Origin: a virus
Direction: 5' to 3' (one strand)
Length of the DNA: 43,077 nucleotides
Virus record (IMG/VR): IMGVR_UViG_3300031237_000011
Location: 1-43,077 of that record
Part shown: positions 2,442 to 42,309 of the stretch, piece by piece
Layout: each line of letters starts with the position of its first letter
How positions within the stretch are numbered: the stretch's first letter is position 1
Notes under the pieces: generated by a model
What the model saw: only the letters and a program-made list of their open reading frames with translations
Told to the model about the DNA's origin: nothing
The model's database searches: none
Position numbers and translations under genes: made by a program

Positions 2442-2642
2442 ATGCCAGAGTACACCGAGTTCAAGTGGCCCATGCAGCAGGAAATCTATTTCCGTGGATG
2501 GAAGAGTAGGCTGCTATTTCTCTGGCATGGTCATGCCACATTGAATTGCCATGTCACAATGCGAACGACAGCGGAATCCATAGATATGGATTACATGTAC
2601 TTCGTAACTACAATTACCCCACACAAAGGAGGAAGTGACTAG
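2442..2642 (+). CDS. Hypothetical protein, 66 aa, leaderless start
   Basis: The ATG sits six bases after the -10 box of the palindrome-bearing promoter and has no ribosome site, so it is probably read from a leaderless mRNA. The protein is rich in aromatic residues (FKWPMQQEIYFRGWKSRLLFLWHGH) and has no recognised motif. It is the first gene of the replication and recombination operon and would be the first product if the operator were released. Confidence 0.62.
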   Translation: MPEYTEFKWPMQQEIYFRGWKSRLLFLWHGHATLNCHVTMRTTAESIDMDYMYFVTTITPHKGGSD

Positions 2643-2648
2643 CGACCA

Positions 2649-2771
2649 ATGGTTATCGCGCTGACCAGAATCATGTGTAAGCAGTGTGGCCACGGCTGGA
2701 TGCCACGAGTGGAGAATCCAGTCAGATGTCCGCGCTGTGGTAGCTACAAATGGAATGCACCAAAGGAGTAA
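2649..2771 (+). CDS. Zinc-ribbon microprotein, 40 aa
   Basis: Two Cys pairs, CKQC and CPRC, 14 residues apart make a minimal zinc ribbon that fills nearly the whole protein. The ATG is weakly supported by a distant AAAGGAGG (2625-2632); a later in-frame ATG just before the first Cys pair is possible. Its end contains the AAAGGAG ribosome site of the next gene. Such ribbons in phages often bind nucleic acid or host polymerase; here this is inference. Confidence 0.6.
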   Translation: MVIALTRIMCKQCGHGWMPRVENPVRCPRCGSYKWNAPKE

Positions 2772-2774
2772 TGA

Positions 2775-3404
2775 ATGAACGATTTGCTAGCAGAACTCGA
2801 CGCGCTTAGCCCTGAAGTCCTCGACCAGAACGAACTCCTGCGCAGCCGGCGCAAGCCTGAATGGGCCAAGGTTTATAACGAGTTCGAGGCTGACACCACC
2901 TTCAGTGAAGGCACTGGCAGAGATGGCAAGCGCCTGCTCGTGCTCAACTGGACCAACATGAACATCATCCAGAGCGACGTGCCCTGGACTGGCACCGAGG
3001 ACTCAGACGAGTTCCCGGTGAGCGACCGTGCTAACTCCAAGATGGGATTCCTGCTCAAGAGCCTGCCCGCTGGTAAGAAGTTGAGCGACCTCAACAAGCA
3101 GCGTGTCCACTACCGCCAGGGCTTGTGGCAGCAGAAGGATGCGGCTGGTAACGTGCGCCTCAACGACAAGGGCTTCCCGGCCTACGAACTGTGGTACTGG
3201 GAAGTCGTGAGCGTTGGTGCAAAGGGCAGCAACGGTGCCAAGCCCGCGCTCTCTGATGAGGACTTCGAGGCGAAGGTGCCACTCGTGGTGGGATTGACCC
3301 ACGCCGCCGCTATCGAGGCAGTGGGTGCGGACGTGATCTCGCGCGGCCTGCTGAGCAAGCGCCTGCGCCAGGTCGATGGGGTCTATGAGATGGTGAGCGC
3401 ATGA
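2775..3404 (+). CDS. Hypothetical protein at head of recombination module, 209 aa
   Basis: ATG 2775 follows AAAGGAG. The protein has a short helical N-terminus, a beta-rich middle (RLLVLNWTNMNIIQSDVPW; ELWYWEVVSVGA) and a helical C-terminus. I recognise no family. Its position just before Cas4-like, exonuclease and Sak4-like genes, where many phages carry a single-strand DNA-binding protein, makes an OB-fold DNA-binding role possible but unproven. It overlaps the following gene by ATGA. Confidence 0.75.
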   Translation: MNDLLAELDALSPEVLDQNELLRSRRKPEWAKVYNEFEADTTFSEGTGRDGKRLLVLNWTNMNIIQSDVPWTGTEDSDEFPVSDRANSKMGFLLKSLPAGKKLSDLNKQRVHYRQGLWQQKDAAGNVRLNDKGFPAYELWYWEVVSVGAKGSNGAKPALSDEDFEAKVPLVVGLTHAAAIEAVGADVISRGLLSKRLRQVDGVYEMVSA

Positions 3405-3772
3405 CCACCCTCAAGGGCACCGCCAAGTACAACAAGGCCAACGTCCTTAAGCAACTCCGTGAAGCTGAAGCAGCGGTTCTGCGCACCATCCAGACCCACG
3501 AACAGGCGCTAATCCAATGGCGTGAGTCTGCCCCACGCAAACTAGCCGGAGCCATCGAACAATATGGCGACGGCAAACAGGGCTACCATTCCTCAATGTT
3601 CAACTTCGAACCGCCACGATTGAACACAGCCTGTGCAGACTACCGGGTGCAAGGATTGAACAAATGCATCCTCCGCATTGAGGCTATGGCAGGAGATCGA
3701 CAAGATGGAGCAATTACCCTTCGTGGAGATGACCCGCTGTGGGATTACGTCGGGCTTGCTGCCTGTCTATAG
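3401..3772 (+). CDS. Hypothetical protein, 123 aa
   Basis: Starts at ATG 3401 inside the ATGA overlap with the gene before, so it is translationally coupled to it. The first half is helical and basic (KANVLKQLREAEAAVLRTIQTHEQALIQW); the second holds several aromatics and two Cys. No family recognised. A perfect hairpin begins on the first base after its stop codon. Confidence 0.68.
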   Translation: MTTLKGTAKYNKANVLKQLREAEAAVLRTIQTHEQALIQWRESAPRKLAGAIEQYGDGKQGYHSSMFNFEPPRLNTACADYRVQGLNKCILRIEAMAGDRQDGAITLRGDDPLWDYVGLAACL

Positions 3773-3980
3773 GGTGAACGCGTAGTTCACCACTTCCCCG
3801 CTGGGCGCAAGGAGACTTACGCTCGGCTGGGAGGGATGGGTAGTTATACCTAGGGTGTCGTCATTCTAGGTGAAGTAAGTCGGGGATGGACGCGTATGAC
3901 GCCCGCCGCTGCACTGCTCATCTCGCCAACTTGGAGGGACGGCATACATGCTTGACGGGGGCTTGCCTGCCTCCCTCCAA
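3773..3980 (+). ncRNA. Candidate structured RNA in a 228-base non-coding gap
   Basis: No convincing gene fills 3773-4000, but several perfect stems do. They are GGTGAAC/GTTCACC (3773-3779 with 3785-3791), GACTTAC/GTAAGTC (3814-3820 with 3875-3881), ACCTAG/CTAGGT nested inside it (3848-3853 with 3866-3871), and TTGGAGGGA/TCCCTCCAA (3931-3939 with 3972-3980). CCCC 3796-3799 can extend the second stem with GGGG 3882-3885. The only small reading frame (3896-3955, 19 codons) ends in the loop of the last stem and could be a leader peptide. I recognise no known RNA family; it may be a leader controlling the nuclease genes or a free small RNA. Confidence 0.45.
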
Positions 3981-4000
3981 CTTAGACAAGGAACCAGGTA

Positions 4001-4195
4001 ATGGCACGAAGGCAAGTTGAGCTACAGGTTAAAAATTGTCACGCGGTAGGACTGAACTTTACCCACCAAGGCCTACACGACCCTCACATCTGGCACCAGA
4101 AACGGCAAGTTGGCCAACAAGAGGGGCCGCAAGATTTCTTCTGCTACCTGTGGTGCCCTGGTGTCGAAGCAGTAGAAGAGGTCGTTTCTAAGTGA
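4001..4195 (+). CDS. Hypothetical protein, 64 aa
   Basis: ATG 4001 follows AAGGAACCAGGTA. The product contains many His and Gln residues and two Cys (FFCYLWCPGVEAVEEVV), perhaps a small metal site (C-x3-C with upstream His and Cys). Its stop overlaps the next start as GTGA (4192-4195). No family recognised. It is the first gene after the structured non-coding gap. Confidence 0.5.
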   Translation: MARRQVELQVKNCHAVGLNFTHQGLHDPHIWHQKRQVGQQEGPQDFFCYLWCPGVEAVEEVVSK

Positions 4196-4956
4196 TCACA
4201 GAGCCAGCACCCCACCTGCACTCGCAGGTTCTCAACACTCTCAAGAGCGAGTACGCATTGAGTGATGATGAGCGCCGACGCACGGGGGCCTTCCATGTGA
4301 GCGAGCTCGTGTACTGCCTGAGTCGCTCATATTGGAACCGCATAGACCCGCTGCCACCCAGCGATGACGAGACCCTACTCTGGAGCCTCGGCTACGGGTA
4401 CGAGCGCGTACTCATCTCGCGCCTGCACATGGAGCCCATCGTGGTAGATGGCATCATCGGCACACCCGACTTTGCCTTCCCAGATGGCACGCCCGCGGAC
4501 CTCAAGACCACCAGGATGGCACCAACTACTAGCCTTGGATGTGCCATCTGTGGGGAAAAGCGTAATGGTCACCCCGGTCGCGCAAAGGCAGGACATCCTT
4601 ATACAAAGAGCGAGCCCGTGCCCTTCGTGATGCCGGAAGGCTGGGTGCGCCAGTTCAAGAGCTACAGGTACATGCTTAATCGTGGCGTGATATGGATGAG
4701 CACTGATCCTCGCTGGACTTTCGGTGTTGTAGTCGTCCACCTGATCCAACCCGACATTCGCGCCTACCTGCTCCACTTCAGCGAGCCAGAGCTATTCGCC
4801 CACTGGCAGTGGATGCTAGAACGCAGCAACACCCTGGAATCCATGCTCGCAGCACAGGACCCACAGCCCTTCATCCACCAGATGGATTTCGAGTGCGACC
4901 ACTGTTCGCGTAAGCTGGATTGCCAGCTCGCACAATCATTGCAAGGAGGAAAGTAA
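4192..4956 (+). CDS. Cas4/RecB-like PD-(D/E)XK nuclease with Fe-S cysteines, 254 aa
   Basis: The order of motifs matches Cas4-like phage nucleases: a first Cys in HVSELVYCLSRSYW (C42), GTPDF (D93), the D-x-K core in ADLKTTR (D103, K105), Q-x3-Y in WVRQFKSYRYM (Q154, Y158) and a C-terminal cluster ECDHCSRKLDC (C235, C238, C244). The four cysteines would hold an iron-sulfur cluster. A CAIC pair at 117-120 lies in an insertion next to the active site and is unusual. Known relatives process DNA ends for recombination. The start is GTG 4192, coupled by GTGA to the gene before. Its neighbours (exonuclease, Sak4-like ATPase, XPF-like nuclease) support a role in phage recombination or replication, not CRISPR. 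Confidence 0.85.
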   Translation: MITEPAPHLHSQVLNTLKSEYALSDDERRRTGAFHVSELVYCLSRSYWNRIDPLPPSDDETLLWSLGYGYERVLISRLHMEPIVVDGIIGTPDFAFPDGTPADLKTTRMAPTTSLGCAICGEKRNGHPGRAKAGHPYTKSEPVPFVMPEGWVRQFKSYRYMLNRGVIWMSTDPRWTFGVVVVHLIQPDIRAYLLHFSEPELFAHWQWMLERSNTLESMLAAQDPQPFIHQMDFECDHCSRKLDCQLAQSLQGGK

Positions 4957-5499
4957 ATGAGGTACTTTCTCGATACTGAGTTCATCGAAGACGGCAAGAC
5001 GATTGACCTGATTAGTATCGGCATCGTCTCTGAGGACGGGCGAGAGTTCTATGCACAGCGCATCGCGGCCAAGTTTAACCTTGCGTCCGATTGGGTAGGG
5101 AGGAACATCTTTCCATCCCTGGAGCATTTTGACGTAATCAAGTTTGGCCGAACTTGCCAGTCGGCGGGTGGTGACTTAGGTAATCGGTGCTCGTCATCAT
5201 GTCCCTGGTGGTCAAACCAAGCGGAAGCCATCAAGAAGTTTTGTGATCCTGACAAGTACGGCAGGCCCGAGTTCTGGGGCTACTACGCCGACTATGACTG
5301 GGTCGTTCTGTGTCAACTTTTCGGCACGATGATGGACTTGCCCAAGGGCTGGCCGATGTACTGTCGCGACATCAAACAGCTTTGTGACGACAAAGGCAAT
5401 CCACGCCTACCGGAGCAGGGCAAGGGCGAGCACCACGCACTTGCGGACGCGCGTTGGAACAAAGTCGCGTGGGAGTTCCTGCAAGGAGGAGAGAAATGA
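4957..5499 (+). CDS. 3'-5' exonuclease, DEDDh type, Rv2179c-like, 180 aa
   Basis: The N-terminal RYFLDTEFIEDG carries the first acidic pair (D6, E8), YADYDWV the second (D114) and HHALADARWN the last (H159 or H160, D164), in the order of the DEDDh exonuclease fold. The N-terminal wording and the 180-residue length fit the Rv2179c-like 3'-5' exoribonuclease family, common in phages. It would trim RNA or single-stranded DNA 3' ends. A Cys-rich insertion (residues 67-83, CQSAGGDLGNRCSSSC) is unusual. It begins directly after the preceding stop, with AAGGAGGAAA as ribosome site, and overlaps the next gene by ATGA. Confidence 0.85.
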   Translation: MRYFLDTEFIEDGKTIDLISIGIVSEDGREFYAQRIAAKFNLASDWVGRNIFPSLEHFDVIKFGRTCQSAGGDLGNRCSSSCPWWSNQAEAIKKFCDPDKYGRPEFWGYYADYDWVVLCQLFGTMMDLPKGWPMYCRDIKQLCDDKGNPRLPEQGKGEHHALADARWNKVAWEFLQGGEK

Positions 5500-6293
5500 G
5501 CCGGGTGCATCTAATCCTGGGCGAAGCAGGCACAGGCAAGTCCACCTACGCCCTTAGCGGTGAAGGGCAAGTAGACTACTACGAGTTGGACATGGGCAGC
5601 TTCGAGCGCGCTGCTGCTGGCATCAACCTGAACGAGGGCAAGGTGTCACTGCATACCTACCCACCACCGTTGACCAACCTCATTGAGCCGGTCAAGACCA
5701 GCACCGTGAACCCCGCTGTGCCACTGAGTGTCCATGCCCTAGAGGGCTGGCGTGAGATGTTCTGGCAATTCGTGAAGGACTACCTTGAAGGGCTCAAGGG
5801 ATCAGGCTACCCAGTATTCGACACTGAGACCAAAATGTGGCTGATGACCCGGCAGGCATTCCTCCAAGAAGTGCAAGAAGCTACCTCCAGCGAGAAGGAG
5901 CGGCTTAACTCATTGGCCTACACAGAGCCCAATGCCCGCTACGACCAGATCATCACTGCTGCCAAGGCGCGAGGCAAAGACCTCATCCTAATCGCCCATG
6001 AGAAGGAAGTCTGGGTGAATGACAAGCCCACTGGCACCTACACCCACGATGGCAAGAAAGAAGCGGCTAACCTCGCGGATGTAACTCTGCGCTTCACCAT
6101 CCGCAACAAGCGCCCTCTAGCCACCATCCAGAAGGCAGGCGCAGGCGGCATGGAACTGGTAGGCCGTGAGCTTGTGTCACCCACTATCGCCAGCGTGAAC
6201 GAGTTTCTTGACGCGGCTACCAAGATTCGCAAAGCTGGCATGAGTCTGCCAGACTCTAATGATGAGCTGCTAGAACTGGCGGCAGCGCTCTAG
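5496..6293 (+). CDS. Sak4-like RecA-fold ATPase (phage nucleotide-binding protein), 265 aa
   Basis: Residues 8-15 are a Walker A loop (GEAGTGKS) right after the first strand; FDTETKMW fits the Walker B region and ILIAHEKEV a later strand or sensor. The size and the short N-terminus match Sak4-type single-strand annealing ATPases and the related phage nucleotide-binding proteins. It would load on single-stranded DNA and promote annealing, with the nucleases next to it. ATG 5496 is chosen over an upstream in-frame start because AAGGAGGAGAGAA lies just before it and it shares ATGA with the preceding stop. Confidence 0.8.
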   Translation: MSRVHLILGEAGTGKSTYALSGEGQVDYYELDMGSFERAAAGINLNEGKVSLHTYPPPLTNLIEPVKTSTVNPAVPLSVHALEGWREMFWQFVKDYLEGLKGSGYPVFDTETKMWLMTRQAFLQEVQEATSSEKERLNSLAYTEPNARYDQIITAAKARGKDLILIAHEKEVWVNDKPTGTYTHDGKKEAANLADVTLRFTIRNKRPLATIQKAGAGGMELVGRELVSPTIASVNEFLDAATKIRKAGMSLPDSNDELLELAAAL

Positions 6294-9779: not shown

Positions 9780-12700
9780 TTAAGCAGTTGCACCGGGTAC
9801 AACACGGAAAGTAATCGCGGCACTCTCTATCTCCTGCCAGTCGCTAAGGGTCGTGGTGCTGCGGGGCTTGAACTTGATCTGTGTGCGTTCAGGGAGCCAC
9901 GCCATTGGCTTGTCGTAGCCCGCACCTAGTAGCCGCTGGACGTTCTTCGTGTTCTGTAAGGTCGCAAGCCGGTTAAGCACGGACTGCAAGGGTTCATGCT
10001 GCTGGTCGGCTGGCAGGATGAAGGTCACTTCCTCGTTAGCTGGCCACTGGCTGACGAAGGTGAAATTCACGGGTAGCAAGTTGGGGGTCTCCGCGCTACT
10101 CGCCTCGTGGTCGCCAATAAGCCGGATGATGAGCGTGTCGAAGGTGACGCCGGGGTCGAGGCTGCTCTTGATTGTGGAGTCTACAAAGGTCTCGGCTGCT
10201 GCATCGAAGGTAATGTCTACCTCGGCGCTGGCGATGGTGAGGTCGCGTCCCGTATCTACCAACACGCGCAAACTCCCATAACTCGTGTTGTTGTCGATGC
10301 GCAGGGACTGGCTTGTCACTTGGGTAAGCGTCTTAAGCATCTCCGGTGGGCCGCAGTCGAGTTGGATGATCTGTACATAGAGTGGGCCATCCTGCTTGAC
10401 CTGTGTGGTGTTGGTCAAGTGCGGGTCGTCAAAGGGGTCAGGTGGTACGAACTCGCGGGCGACCGCGAGGCTGGTTGTACTTACCGGGATGACCCGGTAG
10501 GCGAATCCCTGCTGTGCGTAGTACGGGCACTCTGCCCATTGCAAGGTCTCGTTGGCCAGCGCGTTGCTCTTGGTTTGGAGCGCCCAACTCGCGTGCCACT
10601 TGCCGTCGAAGTAGAGCCAGCGCTGCTGCTCGCTGGCGTCGGTATAGGTGGTGTCTACGATTAGTACGTCGCCCACACTGAACATCTGCACTAGCTTGAT
10701 GGCATTGCCACCGTGGTGGATGGGCATGCCGAGGTCACGAGAGTAGCCATCGCTGCCCACCAGCACTACCTGGTTGAACAGGTTGGACCGAGGGCCGCCA
10801 CCTACAGCCACGCCGCCAAGATAGGTAGAGAGCAGCCCACAGTAGGACATCCCGGTAGCTGGATAGCTGATGCTGGCCACACCTACACTGGTGATGTCGA
10901 AGTAAGCGAGTCTGCGCTGAGAGGTTACGGCTGAGCGGTCATTTGCTTGCGGCACGAGGCAGGCGATCCTGCGCGTAGTTCCACTACTAGAGGTTATTGG
11001 GACTGCAATCCCGCCTGTGGGGAAGTCGAGTATGGTCAGCGGCAGATACCAGTAAACGGTGAGCGCCACGTAGTCAAAGGTGATCGCGTTCGCATCGAGG
11101 TTGGACTGGATGATTAGCCCAAAGCCGGGATTGTTGATGTCGTCGGCTGTCCAGGTAGTGCCCCAGAGCGTGGCCGGCCCGCCGTAGTAGATGGTCTCAT
11201 CAGTAGTGCTGTACTCCAGGTTATTGCCCTGTTGCTTGTTGTCGCCTGTCGCAACAAATGCTTTGAGAAGCTGAATCGTCGTGTCGTCGGCATTGGCCGC
11301 AACGTTAGTCTCAGCTCGCTCTACTCTTGCCGTGATGCCGTTGATGATGGCGTTGCGCGGTAGGCTGAACCCGTAGCCATAGGTCCATATCTGGGTTGTG
11401 TTGTCGTCCGAGCCCGCGCCGGTCTGCCAGGTTGCAGTAGTGTCGCTGTCGTCAGTGGCGGTGAGTGGGCTCAGCGTAGTCGCGAAGTAGGCTGACTGTG
11501 CCGTGCGCTGGGTGTAGTTTCCCACTGCCTTCGTGGAGGACTGGAGCGTTATCCCGCGCTGGTACCAGATAGTCATGGACACGGCAGCAATGCTTACCGT
11601 GGTGGTGTTGCCACTCGTGCCAACCTTTTCAATGGAGATACCCACGCCAAAGTCTGCATCGTTGACGATAGTGGGCGTAAGTGGCGCTCCCCATGTGTCG
11701 TTGTACTCGCCAAAGACACTGGCATAGAGTAAGCCAGCAACTGGGCTGATGTCCGGCGTGGTGCCGATGGCCTTGTCCTCGCCAAAGAGTGCGGCATCAG
11801 CGTCGAACAAGCGCACACTCTTGTAGTTCCACTCTGACATGACCTCTGCGCCACCACTGGGAATCTTGGCCCAGACCATCACTTCTAGCCCGGTCACGAT
11901 ATCGGTGGACTGGAGAGCGAAGCCGAAGGTGTCCACGTAGTAGTAGTGGGTAGTCTCGTTGTCCTCCACCACCGCCGTGGCGAAGTTCTCAGCCGTGGGG
12001 TCAACATTGGTGAGTGTGATGCCGTTGCCAGTGTTGGACCATGCGACCGTGCCGATTCCGCTGTTGTCCGCACCTGCGCCTGCGAAGGTCTGGCTGGTCG
12101 CGTAGGTCGTAGCGGTGGGGTTAACGCTGGTGCTCAGGTCAAAAGGCGTGGGCATGGTGAGTAGCGCATCTGTCTCGTAGACATAGCCCACCATACGGAT
12201 ACCGCCAAAGATGCCGCTCATCACGTTGATACCCAGCTCTGGTATGGGGACAATCCAATCGCAGCAATCGCCGCTCGTGTAGGCGAAGATGCTGGCCCAG
12301 GTAATGCTATTCGCTGTGGGGTCGGTCGTTCCCTTGATGCCGTCAGTGGTGCCGTCCTGCGCGCCAATGGTGAAGTAGCGCGTGGAGTTCCATACGGCAT
12401 CGGCTATCGCGCCCACGTTGTCGGTGATGTTGTCATTCGTGGAGGGCACGATAGGTATGGGTGAAGAAGTGCTCGTATCTTTGATTAAGTAAGGGCCGAC
12501 ACACATATAGGCGCGGCGGTCGTAGAGCAGGCCATGCACGCGCTTATTCGCGGTTACGTACCCGGAGAAGTCGGCAGTGATGAGCGATGTAGTCGTTGTC
12601 AGCTTGTAGGGTAGGGCTGCAATCCCAGGGATATGGCACTGGATGCCCTCATTGAACCAAACGTGGTGCTTGTCCTTGCGCCAGTCGCCAATGAGCGCCG

Positions 12701-37029: not shown

Positions 37030-37302
37030 ATGACACGGCTACCGAACAGTGAATTCGCAGGCTACGCACTAATCAGTGATGCAGGTTTCGGCAAGTACGA
37101 CGACCGCACAATCGCTGGCATCATGGATGCGCTACTCGATGACCTGACACTAGCTGGCGTTCTCGATGCGCTGGCAAGCGCTTGCCGTGAAAAGGCGGAG
37201 CACCTTCGCTCTAACTGGCAGGATGAGGCAAGCGCACGCGTTTGGGATCGTGAAGCTCGGCAGATTGACAAGCTCACAATGCGGCAAGTCCGCACATTCT
37301 AG
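37030..37302 (+). CDS. Hypothetical helical protein, 90 aa
   Basis: ATG 37030 follows GGGGGAAAGAGC; an upstream in-frame ATG at 37012 overlaps that site and is rejected. The sequence is helical (IMDALLDDLTLAGVLDALASACREKAEHL) with a basic end. No family recognised. Confidence 0.66.
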   Translation: MTRLPNSEFAGYALISDAGFGKYDDRTIAGIMDALLDDLTLAGVLDALASACREKAEHLRSNWQDEASARVWDREARQIDKLTMRQVRTF

Positions 37303-37307
37303 CCGAA

Positions 37308-37346
37308 ACGGGCTCCGGCCCGTCGCGCATGATTGGTCACATGCGC
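37308..37346 (+). ncRNA. Two tandem perfect hairpins
   Basis: ACGGGC-TCCG-GCCCGT (37308-37323) has a stable UNCG-type loop; one base later GCGCATG/CATGCGC (37325-37331 with 37340-37346) forms a second stem. They start six bases after the preceding stop, and the next ribosome site is about 30 bases on. Without U-runs they may protect or process mRNA ends. Confidence 0.5.
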
Positions 37347-37386
37347 CTGATGAAGGCAGACCACACACACACAAGGAGACGACTCA

Positions 37387-40438: not shown

Positions 40439-40602
40439 ACGAGAAGCTCCACGAGAAGGGCATTACCTACACCCATGAGCGCTGGTGCCAAGGCTGTTCG
40501 GCGCAGACTGTCCACCGTACCTACCTATCGGGCTATCGGGGCCGGGTCACAGTCACGATCATCTGTCTGGCCTGCGGCCACAGTGGAGGACGGGTCTGCT
40601 AA
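40435..40602 (+). CDS. Zinc-ribbon protein, 55 aa
   Basis: CQGC near residue 18 and CLAC near residue 44, 22 residues apart, with a final Cys at the C-terminus. ATG 40435 lies in an ATGA overlap. Last gene of the small-gene train, directly before the terminator. Confidence 0.63.
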   Translation: MNEKLHEKGITYTHERWCQGCSAQTVHRTYLSGYRGRVTVTIICLACGHSGGRVC

Positions 40603-40630
40603 CCTCTAGCCGGGTGTAAAGTCCAGCACG

Positions 40631-40664
40631 CGCCGCTCTCTAACTCGAAGGGGGCGGCGTTTTG
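40631..40664 (+). terminator. Rho-independent terminator
   Basis: CGCCGCTCTC (40631-40640) pairs with GGGGGCGGCG (40650-40659, two G-U pairs) around a nine-base loop, followed by TTTT. It ends the small-gene operon. Confidence 0.88.
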
Positions 40665-40682
40665 CTATCCAGGTACACCCTT

Positions 40683-40858
40683 GTGACGCCCATTTAGATT
40701 CACTGTGACGGTGTGACGGGTCTACAGAGTATAGAGAGAGAGCCACAGAGGGACACATATAGATCTCTCTCTATATCTCTATCTCTCTCTCTCACTCGTC
40801 ACTTTGTATTTGGAAAATGGATTTTTGCCAGTCACACCCTTGTCACTACACCCGTCAC
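40683..40858. other. Origin-like region with GTGAC iterons
   Basis: The convergent gap 40603-40854 holds three direct GTGACG copies (40683, 40705, 40713) and four inverted GTCAC copies (40798, 40831, 40842, 40854), two of them full CGTCAC. Between them lies a purine/pyrimidine-biased tract. Iterons flanking an easily opened tract next to a replication-type ATPase gene are what a replication origin looks like; not proven. Confidence 0.42.
40730..40775. repeat. 12-bp perfect inverted repeat in a GA/CT tract
   Basis: TATAGAGAGAGA (40730-40741) pairs with TCTCTCTCTATA (40764-40775) around a 22-base loop; further CT repeats continue to 40793. Between the two iteron groups. Confidence 0.75.
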
Positions 40859-41979
40859 AACTGTCGCTGCCAAGCGTCCTCGAAGTCTTGCCGCCTGTAG
40901 CCTCGTGCCTGTTTCTCATTCTCTTGGTAGAGACGCATTCGACTGGGCCGTATGTCGTACTCACGCAGGAGGCGGGCCAGATGCCAAGCGGTTAGTTCGT
41001 AATCCCGATTATGGAACTCGACATGATGCCAGCGTAGCTCCTCATTGCCGAGAAGTAGGCCAACGATGTCCTCGCTGTAGAAGGCGTCCCGATCCTCGGT
41101 GTCGAACAGTTCCTTGATGTCTCGCAGTAGTTCAATGCCCTCGCTCACCTCGAAGTGGCGAGAATGCAGGATGCGCGCTGTTTCTCGTGCTCGCTCAGGC
41201 CAGTCCATACCAAACAGGTCAGCGATAGCAAGCAATGGTTCCCAAAAGTCCATCTGGCGTGAGCTGAGGAAGTCGGGCAAGGCAGGCTCATACTCACCTA
41301 GATAGTTCTCGCATTGGACTAACCAACGTTGGTAGCGAGGAAGTAAGGGAGCCGCTGCTGCTGCCACGATGCGGTCGCGTGCTCGCTCGACCGGATCAGT
41401 TGCTAGCTTGCGGCGCATGACGATGGGAATACTGCGCCCTTCCACCGTGTCGGGTAGTAAGCCCAGCCCAGCCAGTAACTTGGGACCGAATACACCAAAC
41501 TGTCGCAGCACCCAGTTAGGCTTCTCTAAGATGGAGACAGTAGCGCCACGTCTGAAGCCGGCGTCTAGCACACCACGCAGGAAGTCGTCACCCTGGCGCT
41601 GGAAGATGGTCTCCACCTCGTCAATCATCAGTGTGGGCGGCGGGCTAGTGTCGAGTCCGCGCCTGATAGCGGCAGCGGTGGCGTGCGCAGTCTGCCAGGG
41701 CCGAGCGCAGATACGACCCAGCACATCGTAGAGCGTGGTCTTACCACTCTCCTTGTCAGCGGACATCAAGTGCAGGTAGGGTGTGACTTGGGCTGCACTG
41801 ATAGCGTGCGTGTGCGCGACCCAAAGCGTGGCCGCTACTGCCGCCTCGTCACTGAGGACGACAAAGCGGCGGATGTAGGAAACTGTATCGTCTAAGAGGC
41901 TAATATCGTCAGGGGTTAAGCGCTCTTGCAAAAGAACAGACCACCTTTCACTAGCCACCCTCTGGCTAAGCGCTACCAC
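40855..41979 (-). CDS. DUF3631-family ATPase (replication type), 374 aa
   Basis: SADKESGKTT (73-82) is the P-loop, without the usual first Gly, and PTLMIDEVET (116-124) the Walker B. Downstream RGVLDAGFRRGATVS, FGPKLLAGLGLLPDTVEGRSIPIVMRRK and related parts match the DUF3631 family, which elsewhere is the C-terminal part of phage primase-helicases. Here there is no primase domain, so another protein must prime. The start codon is unclear: GTG 41979 has no good ribosome site, and later GTG or TTG codons are possible. Confidence 0.8.
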   Translation of the reverse strand: MVALSQRVASERWSVLLQERLTPDDISLLDDTVSYIRRFVVLSDEAAVAATLWVAHTHAISAAQVTPYLHLMSADKESGKTTLYDVLGRICARPWQTAHATAAAIRRGLDTSPPPTLMIDEVETIFQRQGDDFLRGVLDAGFRRGATVSILEKPNWVLRQFGVFGPKLLAGLGLLPDTVEGRSIPIVMRRKLATDPVERARDRIVAAAAAPLLPRYQRWLVQCENYLGEYEPALPDFLSSRQMDFWEPLLAIADLFGMDWPERARETARILHSRHFEVSEGIELLRDIKELFDTEDRDAFYSEDIVGLLLGNEELRWHHVEFHNRDYELTAWHLARLLREYDIRPSRMRLYQENEKQARGYRRQDFEDAWQRQL

Positions 41980-42051
41980 ACACTTAGAGAGAGGGGCCAG
42001 TGGTAGGTGGCCAGTTCCTATGCGTATTTTAACCCAGGGAAGAGGGAAGCG

Positions 42052-42309
42052 CTACTCATTCAGCGCCTTTTCGTACCGCTCGATCATCGCTTGGGTCCAC
42101 CGCCGCTTGCCCAGCTCCAGGTCGGAGAGCAAGGGCTGGCTCACCTCCATGCGCAGGCTCATCTCCAGTAGGGTGATCTTACGAGCCCGACGCTCTACTC
42201 GCATCTCCGCACCCAGTTCGGCAGCATTGGGCAGGTGGCCACTCCCACCACACATGGGACACGGCCCGCCAATGAGCAGCCGTGGTGCCGGCAATCCTGC
42301 GTAAGTCAT
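42052..42309 (-). CDS. XRE-type HTH regulator with N-terminal Cys pair, 85 aa
   Basis: Residues 31-85 form a lambda-repressor-type helix-turn-helix (LGAEMRVERRARKITLLEMSLRMEVSQPLLSDLELGKRRW in outline). Before it lies CPMCGGSGHLP, a Cys pair with Gly loop and His, perhaps half a zinc site shared in a dimer. ATG 42309 has AGAGGGATTC upstream. Its divergent promoter region overlaps that of the plus-strand genes, so it likely controls both. Confidence 0.75.
   Translation of the reverse strand: MTYAGLPAPRLLIGGPCPMCGGSGHLPNAAELGAEMRVERRARKITLLEMSLRMEVSQPLLSDLELGKRRWTQAMIERYEKALNE

What the first reader, a model, noticed from the sequence alone, without database searches (positions are those of the whole stretch)
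3773..3980. Non-coding gap packed with nested perfect stems ahead of the nuclease genes
A 228-base gap in a tightly overlapping operon is unusual. It holds four perfect stems of 6-9 pairs, two of them nested (3814-3820/3875-3881 around 3848-3853/3866-3871), with CCCC/GGGG extending the outer one. The first stem starts right after a stop codon and the last ends 20 bases before the next gene. A structured RNA, leader or attenuator is likely.
Basis: partly seen in the sequence, partly recalled or inferred. Interest (0 to 1): 0.62.

Follow-up and report, generated by a model that had tools for sequence, protein, structure and literature searches.

The report
Conserved folded RNA between phage genes
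A 208-base non-coding stretch between two genes of a bacterial virus folds into a four-part RNA shape that a distant relative keeps although its letters have changed, so it is very probably a real, undescribed RNA element, most likely one that controls the neighbouring genes.

Summary
The 228-base gap (3773-4000) contains the stems described, and 3773-3980 folds far better than shuffled sequence (z -5.8, 0 of 200). The strongest evidence is a relative: one phage held as two IMG/VR records (identical here), with neighbouring proteins 59-74% identical, has a 199-nt element at the same place. A covariance model built from the window copy alone finds it full length (46.5 bits, E 2e-10). A sequence-only model scores 15 bits on the first third. 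The two folds, computed separately, are closer than with any of 400 shuffles. Eleven pairs changed on both sides. No reading frame is conserved, and no Rfam family matches even at E 10.

The fold has four domains: hairpin P0, long hairpin P1, closed domain P2 and hairpin P3, which ends just before the next gene's ribosome site.

Most likely it is a cis-acting intercistronic element setting translation or processing of the downstream nuclease/recombination genes. An independent trans-acting RNA remains possible. Only two distinct sequences are known, so function is inferred.

The parts
3773..3980 (+). Structured RNA element, whole (P0-P1-P2-P3)
   Evidence: z -5.78; homologue L120:15826-16024 (= L002:6624-6822) matched 1-208 of 208 by model R1
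3773..3791 (+). P0: 7-pair hairpin with pentaloop GCGTA; AC/GT in the window, GT/AC in the relative
   Evidence: z -4.5 here and -5.0 in the relative; 2 double changes
3795..3832 (+). P1: hairpin of 13 positions with one mismatch and a 12-nt loop; same length in the relative (mismatch at a different position)
   Evidence: gapless 60-column alignment A6 for P0+P1; z -4.35 and -3.77
3833..3924 (+). P2: closed domain, arms 3833-3844 and 3913-3924; 9 of the pairs kept in the relative, 4 by double change
   Evidence: z -3.13 here, -1.29 in the relative
3847..3872 (+). P2a: inner hairpin, window copy only; the relative has a different inner hairpin
   Evidence: (no letters of the relative at these pairs)
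3931..3980 (+). P3: 3' hairpin, 9 pairs plus upper stem; 3' arm CCTCCCTCC kept
   Evidence: z -5.27 here, -2.09 in the relative; 3 double changes in the upper stem
3814..3820 (+). 5' side of a possible pseudoknot (GACTTAC in the P1 loop)
   Evidence: 7 Watson-Crick pairs with 3875-3881; 36 of 2000 shuffles reach this; only 5 pairs in the relative, 733 of 2000: unproven
3875..3881 (+). 3' side of the possible pseudoknot (GTAAGTC); the same 7-mer occurs in the relative's P2
3988..4003 (+). Shine-Dalgarno AAGGA (3988-3992) and ATG (4001-4003) of the next gene; not held in the conserved stems
2775..3404 (+). Upstream gene, 209 aa, 74% identical in the relative; OB-like strand order in a low-confidence model
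3401..3772 (+). 123-aa ORF that separates that gene from the element; absent in the relative
4001..4195 (+). 64-aa ORF directly after the element; absent in the relative
4192..4956 (+). Nuclease-like gene, PHROG 1706 ('CRISPR/Cas system associated'); first gene after the element in the relative
4957..6293 (+). 3'-5' exonuclease-like gene (Rv2179c-like, 4957-5499) and AAA_24/Sak4-like ATPase (5499-6293)

Best explanation
Shown: 3773-3980 is a conserved, four-domain structured RNA on the coding strand of an operon, running from the stop codon of one cistron to just before the Shine-Dalgarno site of the next. Inferred: it acts in cis on the polycistronic mRNA. It separates the upstream gene from the nuclease/exonuclease/ATPase (recombination) genes by preventing ribosome carry-over, and it is a folded platform, for an RNase or a phage or host protein, that sets how long and how well the downstream message is translated. 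A protein-bound operator, as for T4 gene 32, is the nearest worked example. P0 lies at the upstream stop codon in both phages, so a terminating ribosome would melt it; the element could therefore report translation of the upstream gene (inference).
For: Structure is real and kept: z -5.78 and -3.1 in the relative; tree distance 77 against 162 +/- 21, 0 of 400; a single-sequence model finds the relative at 46.5 bits against 15 bits for sequence only; 11 double changes against 5.4 +/- 1.7, 1 of 500 shuffles. Position kept: both copies start at the upstream stop codon (P0 follows it in the window and overlaps it in the relative) and end 7 and 6 bases before AAGGA. The element stays in place although the flanking ORFs differ (3401-3772 and 4001-4195 are missing in the relative). 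Same strand as the genes; no sigma-70-like promoter and no plus-strand terminator found in 2600-5000, which fits an internal part of a longer mRNA.
Against: No expression data. The SD is largely free in the predicted fold, so no on/off switch is visible. The gene directly downstream differs between the two phages, which also fits an RNA with its own job. Only two distinct sequences are known. The relative's P2 alone is weak (z -1.29), and so is its gap folded without most of P0 (z -1.55).
Confidence: 0.5

Rival explanations
1. An independent, trans-acting small RNA (or RNA-protein particle) carried inside the operon and cut out of the mRNA, or transcribed from its own promoter.
For: Compact element with sharp ends and several domains but no visible expression platform, kept while both flanking ORFs change. 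Phage small RNAs with regulatory roles are reviewed in PMC12197685 (outline and passages seen).
Against: No promoter-like or terminator-like site found (sigma-70 and intrinsic types only). The ends stay at a stop codon and an SD in both phages, which an independent RNA would not need.
Confidence: 0.25
2. A structure at a replication origin: an RNA primer or a folded single-stranded DNA site among the replication/recombination genes.
For: Neighbouring genes are of DNA metabolism. RNA-dependent origins exist in mycobacterial prophages (PMC7157519, abstract and passages seen). The minus strand also folds better than shuffles (z -2.95 and -2.36).
Against: The plus strand folds much better (z -5.78, -3.12). 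The mycobacterial RNAs lie next to a partition cassette, which was not sought here. No skew test was made.
Confidence: 0.1
3. A self-cleaving or otherwise catalytic RNA.
For: Multi-domain fold with a possible loop-to-junction pseudoknot; the same phage carries a Rfam hammerhead elsewhere.
Against: No ribozyme family matches at E up to 10. No catalytic core can be recognised from two sequences.
Confidence: 0.05
4. A plain stability or insulation barrier: any strong structure would do, with no specific partner.
For: Strong fold; position between stop codon and SD.
Against: Order, lengths (P0 to the end of P1 exactly 60 nt in both), loop GCGTA and the P3 arm are kept beyond mere stability.
Confidence: 0.08
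5. A chance fold, or a coding stretch read wrongly.
For: One weak antisense tblastx match (pieces of 19 aa at 47% and 8 aa at 75%, E 2e-4).
Against: All 12 frames examined (six in each copy) hold at least one stop, those of the match included. Folding and paired changes as above.
Confidence: 0.02

Closest known systems
T4 gene 32 translational operator (PMC535899 and PMC3014915, passages seen)
   Same: Intercistronic phage RNA structure just 5' of a Shine-Dalgarno site among replication/recombination genes; RNA differs in sequence but keeps its shape between related phages (T4, RB69); an ORF sits next to it in one phage and is missing in another.
   Different: T4's is a pseudoknot of about 28 nt followed by a less structured stretch with UUAAA/UAAA repeats, and it controls the gene that follows, which encodes the binding protein. 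Here the element is 208 nt, has no such stretch, and the SSB-like gene (weak evidence) lies upstream.
Structured RNAs found by comparative genomics, some in phages (Weinberg 2010, PMC2864571, passages seen)
   Same: Recognised by fold and paired changes, often with function unknown at discovery; the paper also names elements in 3' UTRs and regulation of upstream genes as precedent.
   Different: No Rfam family, which include many of these motifs, matches here.
RNA-based prophage origins of mycobacteriophages (PMC7157519, abstract and passages)
   Same: Non-coding phage RNA tied to replication.
GOLLD / ROOL / OLE large ornate RNAs (PMC12286853 and PMC12054373, search listing only)
   Same: Large multi-domain non-coding RNAs; a phage or prophage link of some is recalled, not read.
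   Different: OLE is given as about 600 nt in a listed abstract; the others are recalled as larger than this element. No Rfam match.

Membership tests
Any Rfam 15 family (riboswitch, ribozyme, intron, leader) | Match to the family's covariance model | tested here: not met
   No match in the gap at gathering score nor at E up to 10 for 3650-4100
Intrinsic attenuator / terminator leader | GC-rich hairpin followed by a run of U on the transcribed strand | tested here: not met
   None on the plus strand in 2600-5000; P3 is followed by CTTAGACAAGG
SD-sequestering leader | SD paired in one conserved conformation | tested here: inconclusive
   AAGGA about 0.8-0.9 unpaired in the relative and 0.4-0.95 in the window; other conformations not excluded
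T4 gene-32-type operator | Pseudoknot 5' of the SD | tested here: inconclusive
   7-pair candidate in the window (36 of 2000 shuffles), 5 pairs in the relative (733 of 2000)
T4 gene-32-type operator | Repeats of UUAAA/UAAA between pseudoknot and start codon | tested here: not met
   Sequence 3981-4000 as read has none
T4 gene-32-type operator | The controlled gene encodes the bound SSB | tested here: inconclusive
   SSB-like fold suspected for the upstream, not downstream, gene: model pLDDT 47.5, no PDB match at E 0.001
T4 gene-32-type operator | Repression by protein binding | not testable with these tools
   Needs binding and translation assays
Trans-acting phage small RNA | Discrete transcript with a target | not testable with these tools
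   No expression data
Conserved structured RNA (general) | Paired changes that keep helices in homologues | tested here: met
   11 pairs changed on both sides, 96.3% of 109 cells paired; slid controls 41-51% and 0-2; two distinct sequences only

The most novel reading that the evidence does not exclude
A new class of multi-domain phage RNA, about 200 nt, that is not a mere leader: a discrete RNA with its own function (bound to a phage replication protein, or acting on the host), lodged between replication genes and kept while the genes around it are swapped.
Probability: 0.25. Interest if true: 0.75.

Novelty: new member of a known kind. Interest (0 to 1): 0.52.

Why it matters
It is a well-supported RNA family that the public RNA library searched here does not hold, in a phage lineage whose neighbouring proteins find no relative among 50,697 phage records. 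If it is an operator, it would add a case to a short list of phage RNA structures that control replication and recombination genes; if it is a discrete RNA, it would be a new phage RNA class. It also shows that reading one genome can flag a true structured RNA that plain DNA comparison misses.

Tried and rejected
Known RNA family: rejected. Minimal group I intron: considered for its size (recalled that some are about 205-250 nt); no Rfam match, and the flanking ORFs of the window are simply absent in the relative. Protein-coding gap: rejected, with the antisense tblastx hit told above. A 17-codon ORF 3948-4001 with GGAGGG before it, overlapping the ATG (TAATG): seen on reading; I saw no counterpart in the relative's sequence, so it is not used.

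More relatives: viral contigs was scanned 8 of 8 times. Protein queries gave only the two records of one phage; two searches gave none. The P0 pattern gave 85 loci, all listed: 2 of 85 are that phage; in the others I saw nothing more in common. The 3' pattern gave 27 loci: 2 are that phage, the other 25 were looked at and 7 of them more closely; the shared motif there is an SD context, so CTTAG..AAGGA is not evidence for the RNA. Model R1 on 100 of these 108 other loci: best E 0.11. Model R3 on all 108 (100, 8): best 20.5 bits, E 0.0022, and 19.1 bits, E 0.0014; most of these loci were fetched because they carry the P0 pattern, so I count these matches as chance, but did not inspect them one by one. 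Genome contigs: 2 scans, no relative. Phages and plasmids: no match for the element or its neighbours.

Structure of the upstream protein: low confidence; several SSBs among non-significant PDB matches (E 0.16-0.8), a lead only.

Paper searches. None of the listed titles or abstract starts names this element, but they cover open PubMed Central papers only.

Full report
What is there. The window is a whole IMG/VR virus record of 43,077 bases. The stretch 3773-3980 folds at -102.7 kcal/mol against -78.3 +/- 4.2 for 200 dinucleotide shuffles (z -5.78, none as good). After correction for GC its energy is lower than that of all 825 plus-strand tiles of the same length; one minus-strand tile at 41830 is lower still.

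The predicted fold has four parts: P0, a 7-pair hairpin with loop GCGTA (3773-3791); P1, a long hairpin with a 12-nt loop (3795-3832; three weak pairs may form inside the loop); P2, a domain closed by 12 pairs (3833-3844 with 3913-3924) around an 11-pair hairpin P2a; P3, a 9-pair hairpin with an upper stem (3931-3980), 7 bases before AAGGA. Folded alone the four parts have z -4.5, -4.35, -3.1 and -5.3.

A relative keeps it. A protein search with the gene 2775-3404 found two IMG/VR contigs that are one phage: 23,410 and 7,379 bases of them are identical, in permuted order. Three of its neighbouring proteins are 74%, 59% and 60% identical to the window's. Plain blastn does not align the gap. Yet at the same place, between the homologous genes, that phage has a 204-base gap, whose element begins inside the end of the upstream gene. 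Folded separately, it takes the same shape: P0 with the same loop GCGTA, P1 with a 12-nt loop, a closed P2, and P3 (z -3.12, 0 of 200). The 204-base gap alone, without most of P0, gave only z -1.55, 11 of 200. The tree-edit distance between the two folds is 77; for 400 shuffles of the relative it is 162 +/- 21 with minimum 99.

Model test. A covariance model built from the window copy alone (R1) found the relative's element, positions 1-208 of 208, with 46.5 bits and E 2.3e-10 in 117,512 bases, and no other credible copy in the window or the relative (next: E 0.035 on the opposite strand of P1). A model of sequence alone (R2) scored 15 bits, E 0.0014, on positions 1-71 only. E-values are rough because calibration is short. 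On the resulting alignment 96.3% of 109 cells are paired, and 11 pairs are changed on both sides (shuffles 5.4 +/- 1.7, 1 of 500 as high; slid structures 0-2). This alignment was fitted to the structure. The independent, gapless 60-column alignment of P0 and P1 gives 95% paired against 38-52% when slid, and 4 double changes, though 33 of 500 shuffles do as well. P2 carries 4 of the 11 double changes, P0 2, P1 2, and the upper part of P3 3. P2a is not shared. Only two distinct sequences stand behind all this.

Pseudoknot. The P1 loop holds GACTTAC and the P2 interior GTAAGTC; the 7-mer GTAAGTC also lies in the relative's P2. In the window 36 of 2000 shuffles reach 7 pairs; in the relative only 5 pairs form, as in 733 of 2000 shuffles. 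It is possible, not shown.

Not coding, not known. All six frames of both copies contain stops; the one tblastx match is antisense and short, in frames broken by stops. No Rfam family matches. No promoter-like site, and no terminator on the plus strand, was found around it.

Setting. In the window the 123-aa ORF 3401-3772 lies between the upstream gene and the element, and the 64-aa ORF 4001-4195 lies between the element and the nuclease gene; the relative has neither. P0 starts right after a stop codon in the window and overlaps the stop codon in the relative; the element ends 7 and 6 bases before AAGGA. So its ends lie at translation signals in both while the genes change. This favours a cis role in the mRNA: decoupling, translation control, or a processing site. 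The SD is not held in the conserved stems, so a simple switch is not visible. The best worked parallel is the gene 32 operator of T4 and RB69, whose shape is kept while its sequence differs, and next to which an ORF is present in one phage and absent in the other (PMC535899 and PMC3014915, passages). Its UUAAA repeats are absent here, and the SSB-like gene (weak evidence) is upstream, so I do not file this as a member of that class. An RNA with a separate function is the main rival.

Limits. One relative; no expression data; host unknown (the best-covering terminase matches are Streptomyces and Thermobifida phages at 32-45% identity, so an actinobacterial host is a guess). Further scans found no third copy.

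Verdict. The structure is real with high confidence (about 0.93, my estimate). The function is open: cis element 0.5, separate RNA 0.25, others less. Interest is moderate: a new RNA family of a known general kind, with a clear way to test it.

Noticed in passing
window 41938-42013 (-), L120 11660-11735 (-): A second conserved structured element: a 76-nt near-perfect hairpin between an HTH_3 gene (42052-42309) and a DUF3631 gene (40855-41979), z -6.7 here and -5.4 in the relative, with changed stem letters and a kept apical stretch GTGTGTGG.AGCGCT. It may be a regulatory RNA of its own.
   Followed up: partly
window 37301-37365 (+): Rfam type II hammerhead ribozyme (48.3 bits, E 5e-7), ending about 20 bases before an ATG at about 37387 that is preceded by AAGGAG; no Rfam match in the relative.
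   Followed up: partly
window 3387-3404 and 3773-3791: The end of the upstream gene (GGTGAGCGCATGACCACC) resembles P0 (GGTGAACGCGTAGTTCACC), and in the relative P0 is that gene's end. Recombination between two such copies could have gained or lost the ORF 3401-3772.
   Followed up: no
window 3948-4001: A 17-codon ORF with GGAGGG upstream inside P3, whose TAA overlaps the ATG at 4001; no counterpart seen in the relative.
   Followed up: partly
L099, L100, L103, L105, L106, L108, L109, L113, L114: Several other phage contigs have CCTCCACTTAG(n)AAGGA shortly before an ATG, sometimes after a short GC-rich hairpin; it looks like a shared extended Shine-Dalgarno context.
   Followed up: partly
window 10451-10497 (+): Guanidine-II riboswitch match barely above its gathering score (32.4 against 32), antisense inside a large minus-strand gene; probably chance.
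   Followed up: no
window 40600-40860 (+): Strongly folded stretch with AGAGAG/CTCTCT repeats (-95.6 kcal/mol over 261 nt; tile residual -21.9).
   Followed up: no
L120-L123: Two IMG/VR records with different sample numbers are one phage in permuted order, identical over the shared 30.8 kb.
   Followed up: yes
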